This document shows positions 14,960 to 21,854 of a stretch of 64,000 nt of DNA, in pieces. The translations under genes and the position numbers were made by a program. The stretch spans positions 1 through 64,000 of the forward strand of contig NZ_AOIP01000009.1 of NCBI RefSeq assembly GCF_000337535.1, given 5' to 3'. Numbering within the stretch: the first letter of the stretch is position 1; the number at the start of each line of letters is the position of its first letter. The notes under the pieces were generated by a model. The model had not been told where the DNA came from. It saw only the letters and a program-made list of their open reading frames with translations, and did not search any database. The DNA comes from Natrialba aegyptia DSM 13077 (GTDB taxonomy: Archaea > Halobacteriota > Halobacteria > Halobacteriales > Natrialbaceae).

Positions 14960-17900
14960 ATGTCTGACGAGTTCGTCACCGAACTCCATTCTTCCCTCTG
15001 CGAGATTCACGACGAGATCCGCGAGGAGGGGAGCGAGTTCGACTTCCGATTCAGTCTGGTTGACCACCTCTTCACGGACGCGCTCGGTTGGTCACGCACC
15101 GAGGGAGAGGGCCACGTCAACTTCGAGGACGACCGCAAGGACGTCCTCTGCTTCGACGACGATGACCCGCCGTTCCCCGTTGTCGTGTGCGAGACGAAGC
15201 GTCCGTCCCACGAACTCGAACTACCCGACGTCGAGCAGTTGGAGACGTACATGGTGGGCGTCGGGAGCGCGGAGTACGGCATCCTGACGAACGGCCACGA
15301 GTTCCGCCTATACGAGTACGAGCCGGACGAGCGCACCATCCGTTCCATCGACGGTTTCGCGCTCGACGAGGTGGTGGGCGTGGAACCGAGCGGGTTGACG
15401 GCGGAGCAGCGCGAGGTGCTGGAGGAGTTCGAGTACCTCCGACAAGACCGGTTCACGAACGTCGGCGACGCGGAGTACTTCCGACGGCGGGCGCGCGAAG
15501 TTCCTGTCCAGCACCAGCCCGGAACGGAAGACGAGGGGTACGAGCTGTTCCTCGACGCGGTGAAGAAGTCGCTGGACGAGCTGTCGAACGTGATGAGCCG
15601 GTTCTTCGACGACTACAAGGAGCGACCGGAGGACTCGTACCCCCGTGAGTTCCTCGAAACGACGTTTCCGGACTGGAGGGACTGGCGCGAGTACACGGGA
15701 AAGAGCGAGGATGCGAAGAAGACGTTTTGCAGGGAGACGGCGTACATCCTGATGAACCGGGCGATGTTCGCCCGGATTGCCGAGGACAAGGAGATCGTCG
15801 GCCAGACGCGTCTCTCGGGGCGCGGGATGGCGGAGGCCGTTGAGCGCGGGGACGACCGCCCGTACCTTGACGCGCTGATCGACACGTACGACCGGATCGA
15901 CGATCACTACGCTGACCTGTACGAATTGGGAATCTTCGACTGGTGGTGGGTGAGCCGCGACAAGCGCCAGCGGTTCGACTCCGACGAGGAGAGTCGGCAG
16001 GAGGATCTCGAGGACGACTTGGACTACCGCCTCGGAGAGGTGTTCAAGCGGCTGAACCGCTTTGACTTCGAGTACGTCAACCGCGACATCCTCGGCCACG
16101 TCTACGAGGACTACCTGCCGAAGGAGGAGCGCAAGGAACTCGGCGAGTACTACACCCCGATAGAGGTGATCCGGTACATGCTGGACGAGGCTGACTACCG
16201 CCCGGGCGAAGGCATCGGCCGGGAGAACGTCCTTGACCCGGCGTGTGGGAGTGGTGGCTTCCTGACGGAGGCGTGCGACCGCCTGATCCAGCACTACCGA
16301 CAGAAGTTCGGGAAGACGAGCGTGCATCGACTTGATTCGGAGGAGGCTCGGACGATCTTGGAGCGAGCCCAAGAGAACCTCTACGGCATCGACATCAACC
16401 CGTTCGCCGTTCACATCACCCAAATCAACCTGCTGTTCCGCACCATCGACTTGTACGACAAGGTGACGGAGCAAGACCCGTCGTACACGATGGACGGGTT
16501 CCAGATTCACGTCGCCGACACTCTGACGCCGACCCTCCTCGAGAAGCAGGAAGGGAGTACGGACAGCGAGAGTCAGCAGGCGCAGATTCAGCAGTTCGCC
16601 AACTACAACGGGCGCGCGCAGGCGTTCCTCGACGACCGGAACGAGGTTGACCGCATCAAGGACGAGGTGGAGTTCGACGTTGTGGTGGCGAACCCGCCGT
16701 ACGTGCGTACACAGAACATCAACGGGCCGAAGGAGGAGTACGCGGAGCGGTACGCGTCCGTCGACAGCAAGTCGTTCGACATCTACGTCCCGTTCATCGA
16801 GCGGGGTATCGAGTGGCTGGCGGACGACGGGAGACTGTCGTACATTTGCCCGAATCGGCTGCTCACGAACGAGTATGCGGAGGACATCCGGGAACGGATT
16901 GCCGAGGAGCCGCTGGACGTGGTTGTGGACTTCAAGGACGTGGAGGTGTTCGATGCCGCGACACCGTATCCGTGCATCGTCACGGTCAACCGGGAGAACG
17001 TCTGGAGTCCCGACGAGGTTCGGTGTGCGAGATTCGCCGAATCCCGTGACGGCATCCTCGAAGAGATCTTCCGAAATGACGAGTGGGAGACGCCGTCGGG
17101 GGTGGACGAGTACGACTTGTTCACCTACCCCCGCGACCGGCTGGACGCCGACAACCGGAACGGCCACTTGTCGAGCTGGCCGCTGATGCCGGCGGACGAG
17201 CGACGCGTGTACGACAAGATCATCGAGAACGGCGACTTCCGTCTCGGCGAGATCACCGACTCCGTGTTTCAGGGACTCATCACGGGCTGGAACAAGGTGT
17301 TCGTCGGCGAGATTGTCGGCGAGGCCGAAGAGGATGGTGTCGTGCAGTTCGTCCGCGAGGGCGGCGATGAGCCGGAGCCGGTGGAGAAGTCGCGCCTTCG
17401 GCGCCTGTTGAAGGGAAGCGAGATTGACCACTGGGGCGCCGACTGGGAGGGGTTCTGGTTGATCTGGCCGTACGAAGTCCGCGACGGCGAGGCAAGCCTG
17501 TTGCCGCAGGTTACGTTAGAGGAGGAGTACCCGCACCTGTGGGACTTCTTCAAGAACCACGAGGACGATCTGAAAGGCCGCGAGGGCGGCAAGTGGGAGG
17601 ACGTCGAGCAGTGGTGGGCGTTCGGCCGTTCGCAGAACCTCGCCAAGATGGAGCCGGACAAGATCATGCTCAACATCATGAGCGACTACAACCGGTTCGC
17701 CGTCGACACCGAGGGCGAGTACTACTTCATCGGCGGCGGGAACGCCGGCGGGTACGGCATCGATCTGATGGACGAGTACGCGCCCCGGTCGGAGGATCAC
17801 CTCTACTTCGTAGCGTTACTCAACTCCGCGGTGCTGGAGTACTACCACAAGCACATCGCGCCGATTTTCGGGGGTAAGTACTACTCGTACAATAAGCGGT

Positions 17901-18475
17901 ACTTGGAGCCGCATCCCATCGTACTCCCCGAGAACGCGCCCGAGGACGCGGTTGAGGAGTTGGCGAACGACATCAAGCAGGCGCGCGAGGAGATCACGGA
18001 CTTGGAGTACAAGACCGACGACGTCCGCAACTACCTCCCCGAGTACGACCGCTCGTGGACGGTTCTTGATCTCGCCCAGTCGATCAGCCTCGACGATGAC
18101 GACTACCGGCAGGGGCCGATCCGGAAGGATGCGAAGATGAACGTGGAGGCCGTCGAGGAGGTGTATCAGGTGGTGATGAAGCGCGGGCACGAGATCGACT
18201 TCCACGACGAGCGCGTTCGCGACTTCGTGTACGAGATGCTGACGGCGCAGGACAAGCGGTTGACTCGCTCGGAAGTGATGAACATGGACGTGCCGTCGCG
18301 TGACGACGTGATCGAGCTAATGGATCAGCTCGGAGAGGACGTCGACCGGATCGACGAGCTTCAAGAGGAGTTCGAGCGGTTGCAGGCCGAGTTGGACGAC
18401 GTGGTTCTCCGCGAGGTCTACGGGTTCAACGACGGCGACGTCGACGTAGTGGAGGAGTTCTTGGAGGTCTGGTAG
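14960..18475 (+). CDS. Single-chain restriction-modification enzyme (type IIG-like, Eco57I/BREX-PglX-like methylase)
   Basis: This 1171-residue protein joins three parts. Residues 1-150 look like a type I HsdR-N or PD-(D/E)xK nuclease domain, with Asp61 and the pair Glu78-x-Lys80 in VVVCETKRP. A central N6-adenine methyltransferase has motif I LDPACGSGGF near 425 and motif IV NPPY near 577. A C-terminal TaqI-like target-recognition region and a coiled-coil tail (LQEEFERLQAEL) follow. This is the composition of type IIG enzymes that cut and methylate without partners. It is convergent with a membrane protein and a nuclease-like gene, so the stretch reads as a defence island. Confidence 0.85.
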   Translation: MSDEFVTELHSSLCEIHDEIREEGSEFDFRFSLVDHLFTDALGWSRTEGEGHVNFEDDRKDVLCFDDDDPPFPVVVCETKRPSHELELPDVEQLETYMVGVGSAEYGILTNGHEFRLYEYEPDERTIRSIDGFALDEVVGVEPSGLTAEQREVLEEFEYLRQDRFTNVGDAEYFRRRAREVPVQHQPGTEDEGYELFLDAVKKSLDELSNVMSRFFDDYKERPEDSYPREFLETTFPDWRDWREYTGKSEDAKKTFCRETAYILMNRAMFARIAEDKEIVGQTRLSGRGMAEAVERGDDRPYLDALIDTYDRIDDHYADLYELGIFDWWWVSRDKRQRFDSDEESRQEDLEDDLDYRLGEVFKRLNRFDFEYVNRDILGHVYEDYLPKEERKELGEYYTPIEVIRYMLDEADYRPGEGIGRENVLDPACGSGGFLTEACDRLIQHYRQKFGKTSVHRLDSEEARTILERAQENLYGIDINPFAVHITQINLLFRTIDLYDKVTEQDPSYTMDGFQIHVADTLTPTLLEKQEGSTDSESQQAQIQQFANYNGRAQAFLDDRNEVDRIKDEVEFDVVVANPPYVRTQNINGPKEEYAERYASVDSKSFDIYVPFIERGIEWLADDGRLSYICPNRLLTNEYAEDIRERIAEEPLDVVVDFKDVEVFDAATPYPCIVTVNRENVWSPDEVRCARFAESRDGILEEIFRNDEWETPSGVDEYDLFTYPRDRLDADNRNGHLSSWPLMPADERRVYDKIIENGDFRLGEITDSVFQGLITGWNKVFVGEIVGEAEEDGVVQFVREGGDEPEPVEKSRLRRLLKGSEIDHWGADWEGFWLIWPYEVRDGEASLLPQVTLEEEYPHLWDFFKNHEDDLKGREGGKWEDVEQWWAFGRSQNLAKMEPDKIMLNIMSDYNRFAVDTEGEYYFIGGGNAGGYGIDLMDEYAPRSEDHLYFVALLNSAVLEYYHKHIAPIFGGKYYSYNKRYLEPHPIVLPENAPEDAVEELANDIKQAREEITDLEYKTDDVRNYLPEYDRSWTVLDLAQSISLDDDDYRQGPIRKDAKMNVEAVEEVYQVVMKRGHEIDFHDERVRDFVYEMLTAQDKRLTRSEVMNMDVPSRDDVIELMDQLGEDVDRIDELQEEFERLQAELDDVVLREVYGFNDGDVDVVEEFLEVW

Positions 18476-18505
18476 CGCCGCTACACGCTGCTAGCGCAGT
18501 GAAGC

Positions 18506-18943
18506 CTACACCGGCGGCCGTCGCCGCCCGGCGCGCCTGTTGTGCCCGCCCGAGTTCTTGATGACGTCGACGACGAGGACGAGTAGGATGGCGATGAAGA
18601 GGAGAACCATCCCAACCGTGAACGCGCCGTTGAGGAACAGCGAGGTGCCGAACCAGCCGACCGCGTACACGGCGAGTCCGGCCTTGTCGGCCCACGCGTA
18701 GGCGGCGATGACGGGCGCAACGTACGCGATCAAGAAGTAGGCGACGCCCCACGCGCTGAAGACGAGGTCGAGATCGAACACGACGGTCTCGGGGTTGAGT
18801 TGCTGCTGGATGTCGGCGAGGGTGCTGAACAGGAGGGCGACGTACCAGTTGATGAAGGCGAGTGCGATGCCCTCGACGAACCCGAAGATGACGCCTGCCG
18901 CCGAAGTCGGATCCGGATTTTGGCCCCGTTGGACGTGTACCAT
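18506..18943 (-). CDS. Small membrane protein of unknown function in the defence-like island
   Basis: This 145-residue protein has about four transmembrane helices (VIFGFVEGIALAFINWYVAL; VAYFLIAYVAPVIAAYAWA; AVYAVGWFGTSLFLNGAF; VGMVLLFIAILLVLVVDV) and a basic tail, NRRAGRRRPP. It lies 33 bases after the nuclease-like gene on the same strand, so the two are probably co-transcribed. Membrane proteins paired with nucleases often act as effectors in abortive-infection systems, but nothing in this sequence proves that role. Confidence 0.65.
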   Translation of the reverse strand: MVHVQRGQNPDPTSAAGVIFGFVEGIALAFINWYVALLFSTLADIQQQLNPETVVFDLDLVFSAWGVAYFLIAYVAPVIAAYAWADKAGLAVYAVGWFGTSLFLNGAFTVGMVLLFIAILLVLVVDVIKNSGGHNRRAGRRRPPV

Positions 18944-18976
18944 AGATTCAGTTCTTCGCGACCGGTAGTAGTGCGG

Positions 18977-19873
18977 TTACGTATCCCAGTCGTCAGTGAT
19001 CTTCGTCTGCTCCAGCTTGATCTGAACGTCGTCGACGAACTCGTCAACCTTGCGCTGGAGTGCCTGCAGCGACTTGGAGACCACCCGCCACTTATCCTTG
19101 CTCCCGGACTGTAGCTTCTCGATATGTTCGTCGAGTCCCTCCCGCTGGTACTCCGAGAGGATGGTTTCCGTGTGAGCGCGGAGTTCCTTCTTCATGTCCG
19201 CATCGAGGTCAACCCAGAGCGGGTGGGCGTCCTCGAGTAGATCGTCGGCGTCGAACTCGTCCTTTTCCAACGCGACGTGAACGGTCGACTGGAGGATAGA
19301 GATGGTGAATTGCCGGTAGTCGTCCTCTCCCGTTCCTACGTCGAAGGGGAAGTAGTCGGTCGGGAGCCGGCGCGTTCCGGTGTAGATGGGGTACTTGTCT
19401 TCGAGTTCGTCAAGATTGAACTCGTAGTCGTCGAGTGTGTCGATGATGTACTGGTTTGCGTCCTCGTCGAAGTGGATGACGGCGAAGCCGTTGTCGGGGA
19501 GGAAGGGGTTCACGCTCAGGTCTGCAAATGACGAGTAGGCGAACTCGGCGTCGTAGTCCGCCGTGGCCTCAGCCGACGAGACGATACCGCGAGTAAGGAG
19601 GACACCCGGTGACTCGTGGATGGCCTCGTATCTCTCGTTCTGGTGTTCCGAGAGGGTCTTCGACTTGCAGTCGATGACGATGGAGTGGTTGTGGCCACGG
19701 CTGGTGAGGATCAAGTCGGGGTTCATCTTCTCCCCGTCGTGGACGAACTTGGGATCGTGGATGTCGACGGTGTAGCCCAGCTCGCGGAGATCGTTGGGGA
19801 ACGTGCGGTCAATCTGGCAGAGCGCAATCCATGCGTTGATCTGCTGGGTGTGCTTGGAGACGTTCTCTATCAG
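18977..19873 (-). CDS. PD-(D/E)xK-like nuclease-fold protein with probable CTG start
   Basis: This 298-residue protein has coding character well upstream of its first ATG (19726). The frame runs to a stop near 19910 without ATG, GTG or TTG. GGAGGTG at 19885-19879 sits five bases before a CTG at 19873, giving a start reading (M)IENVSKHTQQINAWIALCQ. NPDLILTS followed by SIVIDCKSKTL fits a PD-(D/E)xK core (Asp in NPD, then D-x-K). The C-terminal part is helical and charged (DEFVDDVQIKLEQTK). It is followed by the small membrane protein and faces the restriction-modification gene. No close family was recognised. Confidence 0.6.
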   Translation of the reverse strand: MIENVSKHTQQINAWIALCQIDRTFPNDLRELGYTVDIHDPKFVHDGEKMNPDLILTSRGHNHSIVIDCKSKTLSEHQNERYEAIHESPGVLLTRGIVSSAEATADYDAEFAYSSFADLSVNPFLPDNGFAVIHFDEDANQYIIDTLDDYEFNLDELEDKYPIYTGTRRLPTDYFPFDVGTGEDDYRQFTISILQSTVHVALEKDEFDADDLLEDAHPLWVDLDADMKKELRAHTETILSEYQREGLDEHIEKLQSGSKDKWRVVSKSLQALQRKVDEFVDDVQIKLEQTKITDDWDT

Positions 19874-19878
19874 TCTTG

Positions 19879-19885
19879 CACCTCC
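19879..19885 (-). promoter_or_regulatory. Ribosome binding site deciding a CTG start
   Basis: GGAGGTG on the minus strand is followed by CAAGA and then CTG. No conventional start codon exists in this frame between here and the upstream stop, so the site argues for CTG initiation. Confidence 0.55.
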
Positions 19886-19994
19886 AGTCGATTCGCCGGC
19901 CGTTCTAGCGCGAGTTCACCGGCGGCCGACCTGGCAGCGAGTGGGCCGGGGAAGGCTAAGTCCGTCAACGGTGTCGTCTCATCCAGAAGACCAA

Positions 19995-20561
19995 ATGAGT
20001 CGATCGACAGTCTCGACGCTTACGACGTCGGTCACGGAGCGCGATCATAGTCGCGGGCCGGACGATGCGCCGTTGACGCTCGTACAGTACGCCGACTTCG
20101 AATGTCCGTCCTGCGGGAACCTCTACGACGCCCTCGAGCGGCTACAGAACCAACTCGGCGATCAGTTTCGAGTCGTCTTTCGCCACTTTCCGCTCACATC
20201 GGTCCATCCGCATGCGCTGCGCGCTGCGGAAGCGGCCGAGGCGGCCGCCGCCCAGGGAAAGTTTTGGGAGATGCACGACGTTCTCTACGAGAATCAGGGG
20301 GCGCTCGAAACGGACGATCTGGTCCGCTACGCCGCCGAAATCGGGCTTGATACGGATCAGTTCGTCCGCGAGTTAGAGAACGGCACTCACCAGGAACGCA
20401 TCGAGGAAGACGTTTCGAGCGGTGCCCAGAGTGGCGTCGACGGGACGCCGACGGTCTTCATTAACGGCCGTCGGTACGATGGTCCTGCTGATACTGCCGG
20501 ACAAAACTATTCACACGTCGGTCGCATTCGAACGGTCGTCGCCACAAGCGACGATCCGTGA
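19995..20561 (+). CDS. DsbA-family thioredoxin-fold protein
   Basis: This 188-residue protein has a thioredoxin fold with redox motif FECPSCGNLY near residue 36, the DsbA helical insert, and the cis-Pro loop GVDGTPTVFINGRRYDG near 155. No signal peptide is visible with the ATG at 19995. The last 24 residues (TAGQNYSHVG onward) are encoded by the left part of a 110-bp repeat element that begins at 20491, so the native C-terminus has probably been replaced. It is likely a dithiol oxidoreductase. Confidence 0.85.
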   Translation: MSRSTVSTLTTSVTERDHSRGPDDAPLTLVQYADFECPSCGNLYDALERLQNQLGDQFRVVFRHFPLTSVHPHALRAAEAAEAAAAQGKFWEMHDVLYENQGALETDDLVRYAAEIGLDTDQFVRELENGTHQERIEEDVSSGAQSGVDGTPTVFINGRRYDGPADTAGQNYSHVGRIRTVVATSDDP

Positions 20562-20600
20562 GACGCGATCGAGTGTTCACTGACTTTTGTCCGGCAGTAT
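20491..20600 (+). repeat. 110-bp terminal-inverted-repeat element, copy 1 (MITE-like)
   Basis: The ends ATACTGCCGGACAAAA (20491-20506) and TTTTGTCCGGCAGTAT (20585-20600) form a perfect 16-base inverted repeat. A second element of exactly 110 bases lies at 36786-36895. By eye the two align without gaps at roughly 64 percent, best in the last 30 bases. It carries no gene of its own. No target duplication was evident. It is joined to the C-terminus of the DsbA-like gene and to the N-terminal region of the transporter gene. Confidence 0.75.
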
Positions 20601-20684
20601 GAACTCGACGCGCTGTACGAGGCGATCGTACGGACGGGAGACATCACCGCTATCCAGGCGTCGATCCGGCATCGCGGGAGGGCG

Positions 20685-21620
20685 TTGCGCGATACGATCG
20701 ACCGTTCACAAAGTGGGGCCCCGGCCGCGGGTGCGGCCATTCGCGATTACTTCTCGGCGGACGAGATCTTCCAGCGGATCGTCGCCACCGCCGACGAGGA
20801 GTTCAGTCGGAGCAATCGGCTGTTATTCATGAGCGGGTTGGCTGCCGGGTTCGCGGTGACGCTGACGTTTCTTGCGCGATCAGCGGTTACTGCGGCGGTT
20901 CCGACCGATTCGGGGGAGTTGATCGGGAATCTGTTCTATCCGGTCGGCTTCGTGCTCATCGTCATGGGGCGGTATCAACTCTTCACCGAGAACACGCTCA
21001 CGCCGGTCACGCTCGTGTTGACGCGCATCGCGAGCGTCCGAAACCTACTTCGACTGTGGGCGGTTGTTATCGTTGCGAACGTTCTCGGGGCGGCTCTCGG
21101 CGCGTTCGTCCTTGCGACCACGGGTGTGTTCACGCCCGAAGCCGCCGCGGTCGCACGGGGCTTCGGCGAACACGCGTTTGCGACCGGCTGGTGGGATCTC
21201 TTTTTCAAGGCGGTGTTCGCGGGGAATATCGTTGCAGCGATGGTCTGGCTGGTGCACGCGAGTCAGGATACGACGGCGCGGTTTCTGATCATCGTTTTTC
21301 TCATGTTCTTGATCCCGGCGACCGATCTGTTCCACTGTATTACCGGCATGTGTGAGGTGCTTTACTTCGCCTTCCGCGGGCAAGAAACGCTCTGGGCTGC
21401 CGTTGTGGAATTCTTCGTCCCGGTTACGCTCGGCAACATCGTCGGCGGGGTCCTACTGGTTGCACTGCTCAACTACAGCCAGACGGCCGAGCGGCAATAC
21501 CCGGATCGAGATGCGAGTCAGCTCAAACTCTCCTGGGCGGAATGGTTATACAGTCGACAGACGGGCCACCCTCGGTCGCCATCGTTCAGTGGCGAGAACG
21601 ACGACGAATTGACCGAGTAA
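20685..21620 (+). CDS. Formate/nitrite transporter (FNT) family protein
   Basis: This 311-residue protein from TTG 20685 has six hydrophobic helices with FNT-like features: GLAAGFAVTLTFLA, FYPVGFVLIVMGRYQLFTEN, WDLFFKAVFAGNIVAAMVWL and GNIVGGVLLVALLNY. It would form a pentameric anion channel. Coding-like sequence in the same frame (LDALYEAIVRTGDITAIQAS) continues upstream to the edge of the 110-bp element, so the original start has probably been lost and TTG or an upstream CTG (20613) is used. The transported anion cannot be inferred. Confidence 0.8.
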   Translation: MRDTIDRSQSGAPAAGAAIRDYFSADEIFQRIVATADEEFSRSNRLLFMSGLAAGFAVTLTFLARSAVTAAVPTDSGELIGNLFYPVGFVLIVMGRYQLFTENTLTPVTLVLTRIASVRNLLRLWAVVIVANVLGAALGAFVLATTGVFTPEAAAVARGFGEHAFATGWWDLFFKAVFAGNIVAAMVWLVHASQDTTARFLIIVFLMFLIPATDLFHCITGMCEVLYFAFRGQETLWAAVVEFFVPVTLGNIVGGVLLVALLNYSQTAERQYPDRDASQLKLSWAEWLYSRQTGHPRSPSFSGENDDELTE

Positions 21621-21648
21621 GATAGAGCGGGAACCGATACTGCAGTTG

Positions 21649-21665
21649 GCGAACGGAGCGTTCGC
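21649..21665 (+). terminator. Hairpin after the FNT gene
   Basis: GCGAACG-GAG-CGTTCGC is a perfect seven-pair hairpin 29 bases after the stop codon. A second short palindrome, CAAAATCGCGGTTTTG, follows about 15 bases later. It may be a terminator or mRNA-stability element; no long T tract is present. Confidence 0.3.
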
Positions 21666-21854
21666 TAATCGGGGCTCATTACAAAATCGCGGTTTTGAAG
21701 GGTTTAACGAACAGATAATGAAGGGCACCGTCTCCGTTGGATTGAGCTAAGACGCGTGCTCGTATCGACCGGCGAGTGGCTGTGGTCCGTCGCAGATTGG
21801 ACGCAGTACCGGTCGAGCTAGCACAGCAGTACTACATACCAGAGGCATGATACG

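What the first reader, a model, noticed from the sequence alone, without database searches (positions are those of the whole stretch)
20460..20690. Repeat element has rewritten the end of one gene and the start of the next
The DsbA-like protein ends with about 24 residues encoded by the element. The FNT transporter frame shows coding-like sequence (LDALYEAIVRTGDITAIQAS) running up to the element's right edge, where its normal start should be. The element therefore seems to sit between two genes and changed both termini, forcing a TTG or CTG start on the transporter.
Basis: partly seen in the sequence, partly recalled or inferred. Interest (0 to 1): 0.55.

Follow-up and report, generated by a model that had tools for sequence, protein, structure and literature searches.

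The report
Small transposon split a fused gene
In a salt-loving archaeon, a 108-base mobile DNA hairpin has landed inside one gene that joins a DsbA-like protein to a formate/nitrite-type transporter, so that what looks like two neighbouring genes is one gene recently cut in two.

Summary
In detail: the DsbA frame ends inside a repeat element, and transporter coding sequence begins at its right edge without a normal start. In N. taiwanensis, N. asiatica and other Natrialbaceae, DsbA and FNT are one continuous frame of about 500 residues. The window has that frame plus 111 bp: a 108-bp element (20492-20599) and a duplicated TGA; N. taiwanensis shows the empty site. As 111 is divisible by three the frame is kept, but a TGA inside the element (20559-20561) ends translation after 23 new residues, and the orphaned FNT half has no ATG or GTG before its domain, only TTG 20685. 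The element is a transposase-less, MITE-like hairpin with perfect 15-bp inverted ends and TNA target duplications, in nine close copies here and with its end pattern in 55 of 125 Natrialbaceae genomes. The copy is identical to another in this genome, so the insertion looks recent. Most likely the gene is broken; a fused paralogue remains. No autonomous partner was found. Ordinary mechanism, mildly interesting as gene fission and for a widespread hairpin family that I did not find described.

The parts
19995..20561 (+). 5' half of the split gene: DsbA-like frame (188 aa), ATG 19995, now ending at TGA 20559-20561 inside the element
20489..20491 (+). left copy of the duplicated target triplet TGA
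   Evidence: single copy at the empty site in N. taiwanensis
20492..20599 (.). 108-bp MITE-like hairpin element
20492..20506 (+). left terminal inverted repeat, 15 bp
20585..20599 (-). right terminal inverted repeat, 15 bp, perfect
20490..20558 (+). 23 codons added to the DsbA frame by the insertion
20600..20602 (+). right copy of the duplicated target triplet TGA
20562..21620 (+). 3' half of the split gene: open frame with the Form_Nir_trans (FNT) domain, stop TAA 21618-21620; no ATG or GTG ahead of the domain
20601..20684 (+). orphaned stretch that in relatives codes for the end of the DsbA domain and the interdomain region
20685..20687 (+). TTG, first common start codon of the transporter frame

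Best explanation
A 108-bp non-autonomous (MITE-like) transposable hairpin inserted at a TGA triplet inside a single gene for a DsbA-like domain fused to a formate/nitrite-family transporter and duplicated the TGA (shown by the empty site in relatives). The 111-bp addition keeps the frame but brings in one stop codon, so the gene now gives at most a DsbA fragment that lacks the end of its domain and carries a 23-residue tail (shown from sequence). The transporter half has no ATG or GTG start ahead of its domain and is probably not made (inferred). A transposase supplied in trans, probably of an IS5-type element that duplicates TNA (inferred from the target duplication only), moved it recently. 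The gene is most likely a fresh pseudogene, tolerated because a fused paralogue exists elsewhere in the genome (inferred).
For: Fused frame without the element in N. taiwanensis and N. asiatica, each 504 codons, exactly the window gene's length when the 111 bp are left out. DsbA-FNT fused in the 8 best-scoring of 29 relative loci and in 5 of 11 named loci, a further one having the reverse order. Empty site CCTGCTGAACTC in N. taiwanensis against CCTGC-TGA-element-TGA-ACTC in the window. Identical TNA triplets on both sides in 20 of 28 end-pair rows. The window copy is identical, TGA included, to the copy at G000:C14:111723-111836. Thioredoxin_4 matches to profile position 156 of 165 in the window but 163 of 165 in N. 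taiwanensis. Fused paralogue at G000:C59.
Against: Both halves are otherwise intact. Changes private to the window lineage (4 nonsynonymous codons, 22 synonymous differences) look no looser than those of N. taiwanensis (2, 17) or N. asiatica (7, 28), so decay is not shown; with so few changes this says only that the insertion is young or that something is still constrained. No autonomous element with these ends was found. Expression was not measured. The fused orthologues compared come from one genome per species.
Confidence: 0.9

Rival explanations
1. Functional fission: the element turned the composite into two working genes; the DsbA half works with its new tail and FNT is translated from TTG 20685 or another unusual start.
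For: FNT without DsbA is common in relatives (21 of 29 relative loci). TTG 20685 lies upstream of the FNT Pfam match, which starts near 20763. Both halves are open and show no excess of nonsynonymous change.
Against: No ATG or GTG before the domain. The G-rich stretch GGGAGGG at 20676-20682 lies too close to the TTG for a usual ribosome-binding site (spacing rule recalled) and sits in plain coding sequence in relatives. The residues just after the insertion are well conserved in 5 fused homologues and are lost from the DsbA half.
Confidence: 0.1
2. Two genes were ancestral and the relatives fused them by losing the element.
For: Transposable elements can be lost; FNT without DsbA exists in more distant relatives.
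Against: The fused frame is shared by several genera, up to about 55% identity, while the insertion with its identical TGA duplication is seen only here and its copy equals another in the same genome. The frame and length match exactly after leaving out the insertion.
Confidence: 0.02
3. The stop in the element is read through, giving a full-length protein with 37 extra residues.
For: 111 bp keeps the frame and the frame holds one stop only.
Against: No known read-through signal was identified; frame-neutral length is a property of every 108-bp copy with a 3-bp duplication, not of this site.
Confidence: 0.02

Closest known systems
Haloarchaeal MITEs and small mobile repeats as described for Haloquadratum walsbyi (PMC3119063; passages seen)
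   Same: short, transposase-free, terminal inverted repeats, target duplications, strain-specific insertions; the paper also notes MITEs that moved although no functional matching transposase was found in the genome
   Different: the paper's MITEs have ends related to a known transposon; none was found here. The element was not compared by sequence with the Haloquadratum families
IS1031 subgroup of the IS5 family (PMC12016507; one passage seen)
   Same: 3-bp TNA target duplication, TGA among the targets
   Different: the inverted repeat quoted there (GAACCTGTCTAGTATCT) differs from TACTGCCGGACAAAA; no transposase belongs to the element
Rickettsia palindromic elements (PMC2635572; passages seen; that they sit in frame inside proteins is recalled)
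   Same: palindromic short repeat found inside a protein gene, with the frame kept
   Different: this copy brings in a stop codon and breaks the protein; most other copies here lie outside long frames
FNT family channels (FocA, HSC; solved structures listed) and DsbA-like oxidoreductases
   Same: both domains recognisable by Pfam and by PDB sequence matches
   Different: here they are one composite protein in the intact relatives

Membership tests
MITE | short, cannot code for a transposase | tested here: met
   108 bp; with the TGA triplets, four of six frames hold a stop inside the element, one is bounded by the triplets themselves and one is open
MITE | terminal inverted repeats | tested here: met
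   perfect 15 bp at both ends
MITE | target duplication of constant size | tested here: met
   identical TNA triplets in 20 of 28 rows; empty site
MITE | many copies | tested here: met
   11 places in the own genome; end pattern in 55 of 125 family genomes
MITE | ends shared with an autonomous transposon | tested here: inconclusive
   none found among 60 DDE_Tnp_1 loci or around 20 single-ended hits
IS5/IS1031-type mobilised element | TNA target duplication | tested here: met
   rule from PMC12016507
IS5/IS1031-type mobilised element | matching inverted repeat or transposase | tested here: inconclusive
   only one quoted IR compared by eye, unlike; no partner transposase found
Rickettsia-type in-frame palindromic element | adds residues without stopping the protein | tested here: not met
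   TGA at 20559-20561
DsbA-FNT composite gene | both domains in one open frame in orthologues | tested here: met
   the window copy itself is interrupted
Rfam RNA family | match to a curated RNA family | tested here: not met
   no match up to E = 1 in 19900-21800

The most novel reading that the evidence does not exclude
A frame-neutral mobile hairpin is turning a composite DsbA-transporter into two separately expressed proteins: transposon-driven gene fission caught at an early stage. The same hairpin family, held at about 108 bp with compensatory changes across much of Natrialbaceae, may be kept for its folded form.
Probability: 0.1. Interest if true: 0.5.

Novelty: new member of a known kind. 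Interest (0 to 1): 0.27.

Why it matters
It corrects a gene call: two 'genes' are fragments of one. It brings out a DsbA-FNT fusion, with an order-reversed version in a Salinivenus MAG, which suggests that thiol chemistry and FNT transport belong together. It also documents a widespread transposase-less hairpin family in Natrialbaceae with a clear TNA target rule, an empty site and a recent move.

Tried and rejected
Autonomous partner: DDE_Tnp_1 (PF01609) loci from the genus and from three copy-rich genomes were scanned for the inverted ends: 30 loci (the same 30 and 30 more), where five chance pairs came up, none with convincing ends. Only loci handed out were scanned; many more hits had none. 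PF13586 gave 0 of 2 genomes. Twenty hits that had looked single-ended were fetched: 16 had a diverged second end about 80 or 110 bp away and 4 had none; their flanks were not searched for other transposase families.

Longer copies (171-188 bp) in this genome and in N. taiwanensis each hold one N with a repeated inner part, so I read them as assembly joins over the repeat, not as a second form.

Structure prediction of the fused N. taiwanensis protein on 5 sequences failed (mean pLDDT 39.6) and was not used for a fold search; its helix call at 164-177 is not used as evidence.

Rfam: nothing. Phage collection: no match to the element. The 63 viral contigs with the 15-base end were not examined and may be chance.

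Papers: searches (open-licence PMC library only). No paper on this element or on a DsbA-FNT fusion came up; this is weak evidence of absence, as three of them returned no paper at all for narrow terms.

Rows set aside: elements with N and lengths outside 110-118 bp (triplets included) and loci from viral contigs were dropped before the 50-copy alignment; those 50 were found partly with a pattern that asked for TNA, so target counts are taken only. In one search one of the 28 rows (L093, 143 bp) is a chance end pair, and some rows are one ancestral insertion seen in different species (for example L083/L096/L103 and L088/L099), so the rows are not all independent.

Full report
What the window is. 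Two same-genus genomes carry contigs of the same lengths as the named records of Natrialba asiatica DSM 12278 and N. taiwanensis DSM 12281, so this is a Natrialba; the species was not established.

The two frames are one frame. The DsbA-like ORF and the FNT ORF both read with codons starting at positions divisible by three. The part ahead of the stop gives Pfam Thioredoxin_4 and DSBA; the part after gives Form_Nir_trans. A protein search with the FNT half found open frames of 545 and 560 residues in two same-genus genomes at 97-98% identity, and reading them shows DsbA and FNT in one protein. A domain test gave: of 29 relative loci (L010-L038) the 8 best-scoring were DsbA-FNT fusions and the other 21 had FNT without DsbA; of 11 named loci (L069-L079, three of them the same genes as in the first set) 5 were DsbA-FNT, 1 (a Salinivenus MAG) was FNT-DsbA, and 5 had FNT without DsbA. 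The Halostagnicola larsenii orthologue is annotated as a single CDS of 1524 bp.

The insertion. N. taiwanensis reads CCTGCTGAACTC where the window reads CCTGC-TGA-[108 bp]-TGA-ACTC. Leaving 111 bp out of the window gives 504 codons, the same as in N. taiwanensis and N. asiatica, with no other stop or shift. N. asiatica has CGA at the site. The element copy equals another copy in the same genome, triplets included, which points to recent movement. Around the site, DNA similarity to N. taiwanensis and N. asiatica runs from about 19883 to about 24100, broken only by the insertion.

What it does to the proteins. In this frame the insertion supplies 23 codons and then TGA at 20559-20561. The lost part belongs to the DsbA domain: the Thioredoxin_4 match runs to profile position 163 of 165 in N. 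taiwanensis but 156 of 165 in the window, and PDB relatives such as 3gyk and 3eu3 align to residue 175-176 of the fused protein, past the insertion after residue 165, although the three best-scoring PDB matches stop at 166. The transporter frame is open from 20562 but has no ATG or GTG before its domain; the first common start is TTG 20685. Among changes private to one of three Natrialba sequences the window has 4 nonsynonymous codons and 22 synonymous differences, N. taiwanensis 2 and 17, N. asiatica 7 and 28: too few to show decay.

The element. The ends are perfect 15-bp inverted repeats. As one strand it folds into a hairpin over its whole length (z -7.6 with DNA and -8.0 with RNA parameters; 0 of 200 shuffles as good). 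There are 11 places in this genome, nine at 92% identity or more and two near 75%. A search for the end without asking for the flanking triplet, followed by pairing of ends, gave identical TNA triplets in 20 of 28 rows: TGA 10, TCA 8, TAA 2. The end pattern with TNA occurs in 55 of 125 Natrialbaceae genomes, in 18 of 29 genera, while the reversed control pattern had none in any row. Eight plasmid records match, of the genera Natronorubrum, Natribaculum and Natrialba. Fifty distinct copies of 110-114 bp (triplets included) were aligned. The consensus hairpin keeps 94.9% standard pairs against 91.0% in shuffles and a covariation score of 0.237 against 0.160, with 0 of 500 shuffles as high for both; the number of pairs with a two-sided change is less striking, 39 of 500 shuffles reaching it. 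The structure was derived from the same alignment, and related copies inflate such scores. So the palindrome seems kept while sequence drifts; copying or conversion of the hairpin would explain that as well as selection.

How it works. Shown: insertion with TNA duplication, frame-neutral length, one stop, split of a composite gene. Inferred: mobilisation in trans by an IS5-like transposase (a paper states that the IS1031 group prefers TNA and makes a 3-bp repeat, PMC12016507, passage seen), loss of the composite function, and cover by the fused paralogue at G000:C59 (57% identity). No autonomous partner was found. A second copy in the same genome, on contig C54, also interrupts a long frame whose second part has a borderline TraG-type Pfam match, though that copy contains an assembly gap. 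Most other copies lay outside convincing long frames, judged by eye from joined flanks.

Standing. As an event this is a standard small-element insertion. The points of some interest are the DsbA-FNT composite, the exact empty site, and the spread of the hairpin family. In the searches listed under Tried and rejected I saw no paper on either; the library holds only open-licence papers.

Noticed in passing
G000:C54:2224-2396 (L113): Another copy of the element interrupts a long frame; the two parts read 561 and 626 residues, the second with a borderline TraG-D_C Pfam match. The copy contains an N, so its length is uncertain.
   Followed up: partly
L074:2381-4018: A Salinivenus MAG contig carries the same two domains in reverse order (FNT then DsbA) in one frame.
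   Followed up: partly
G000:C59 (L121) and G048:C2 (L015): A stand-alone DsbA-like frame lies directly beside a fused DsbA-FNT gene.
   Followed up: no
window 14960-19883: Similarity to N. taiwanensis and N. asiatica begins at about 19883; the sequence just to the left is not shared at this place and includes an Eco57I-type methylase/restriction-like gene at 14960-18475.
   Followed up: partly
L085-L088, L092, L095: Element copies of 171-188 bp hold one N and a repeated inner part: probably assembly joins over the hairpin rather than a true long form.
   Followed up: partly
G050 (same family, another genus): Very copy-rich genome: 181 forward and 161 reverse end matches with up to one mismatch.
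   Followed up: no
G113 (same family) and L106 (G003): A shorter form of about 78-80 bp with the same ends and, in L106, the same TCA duplication.
   Followed up: no
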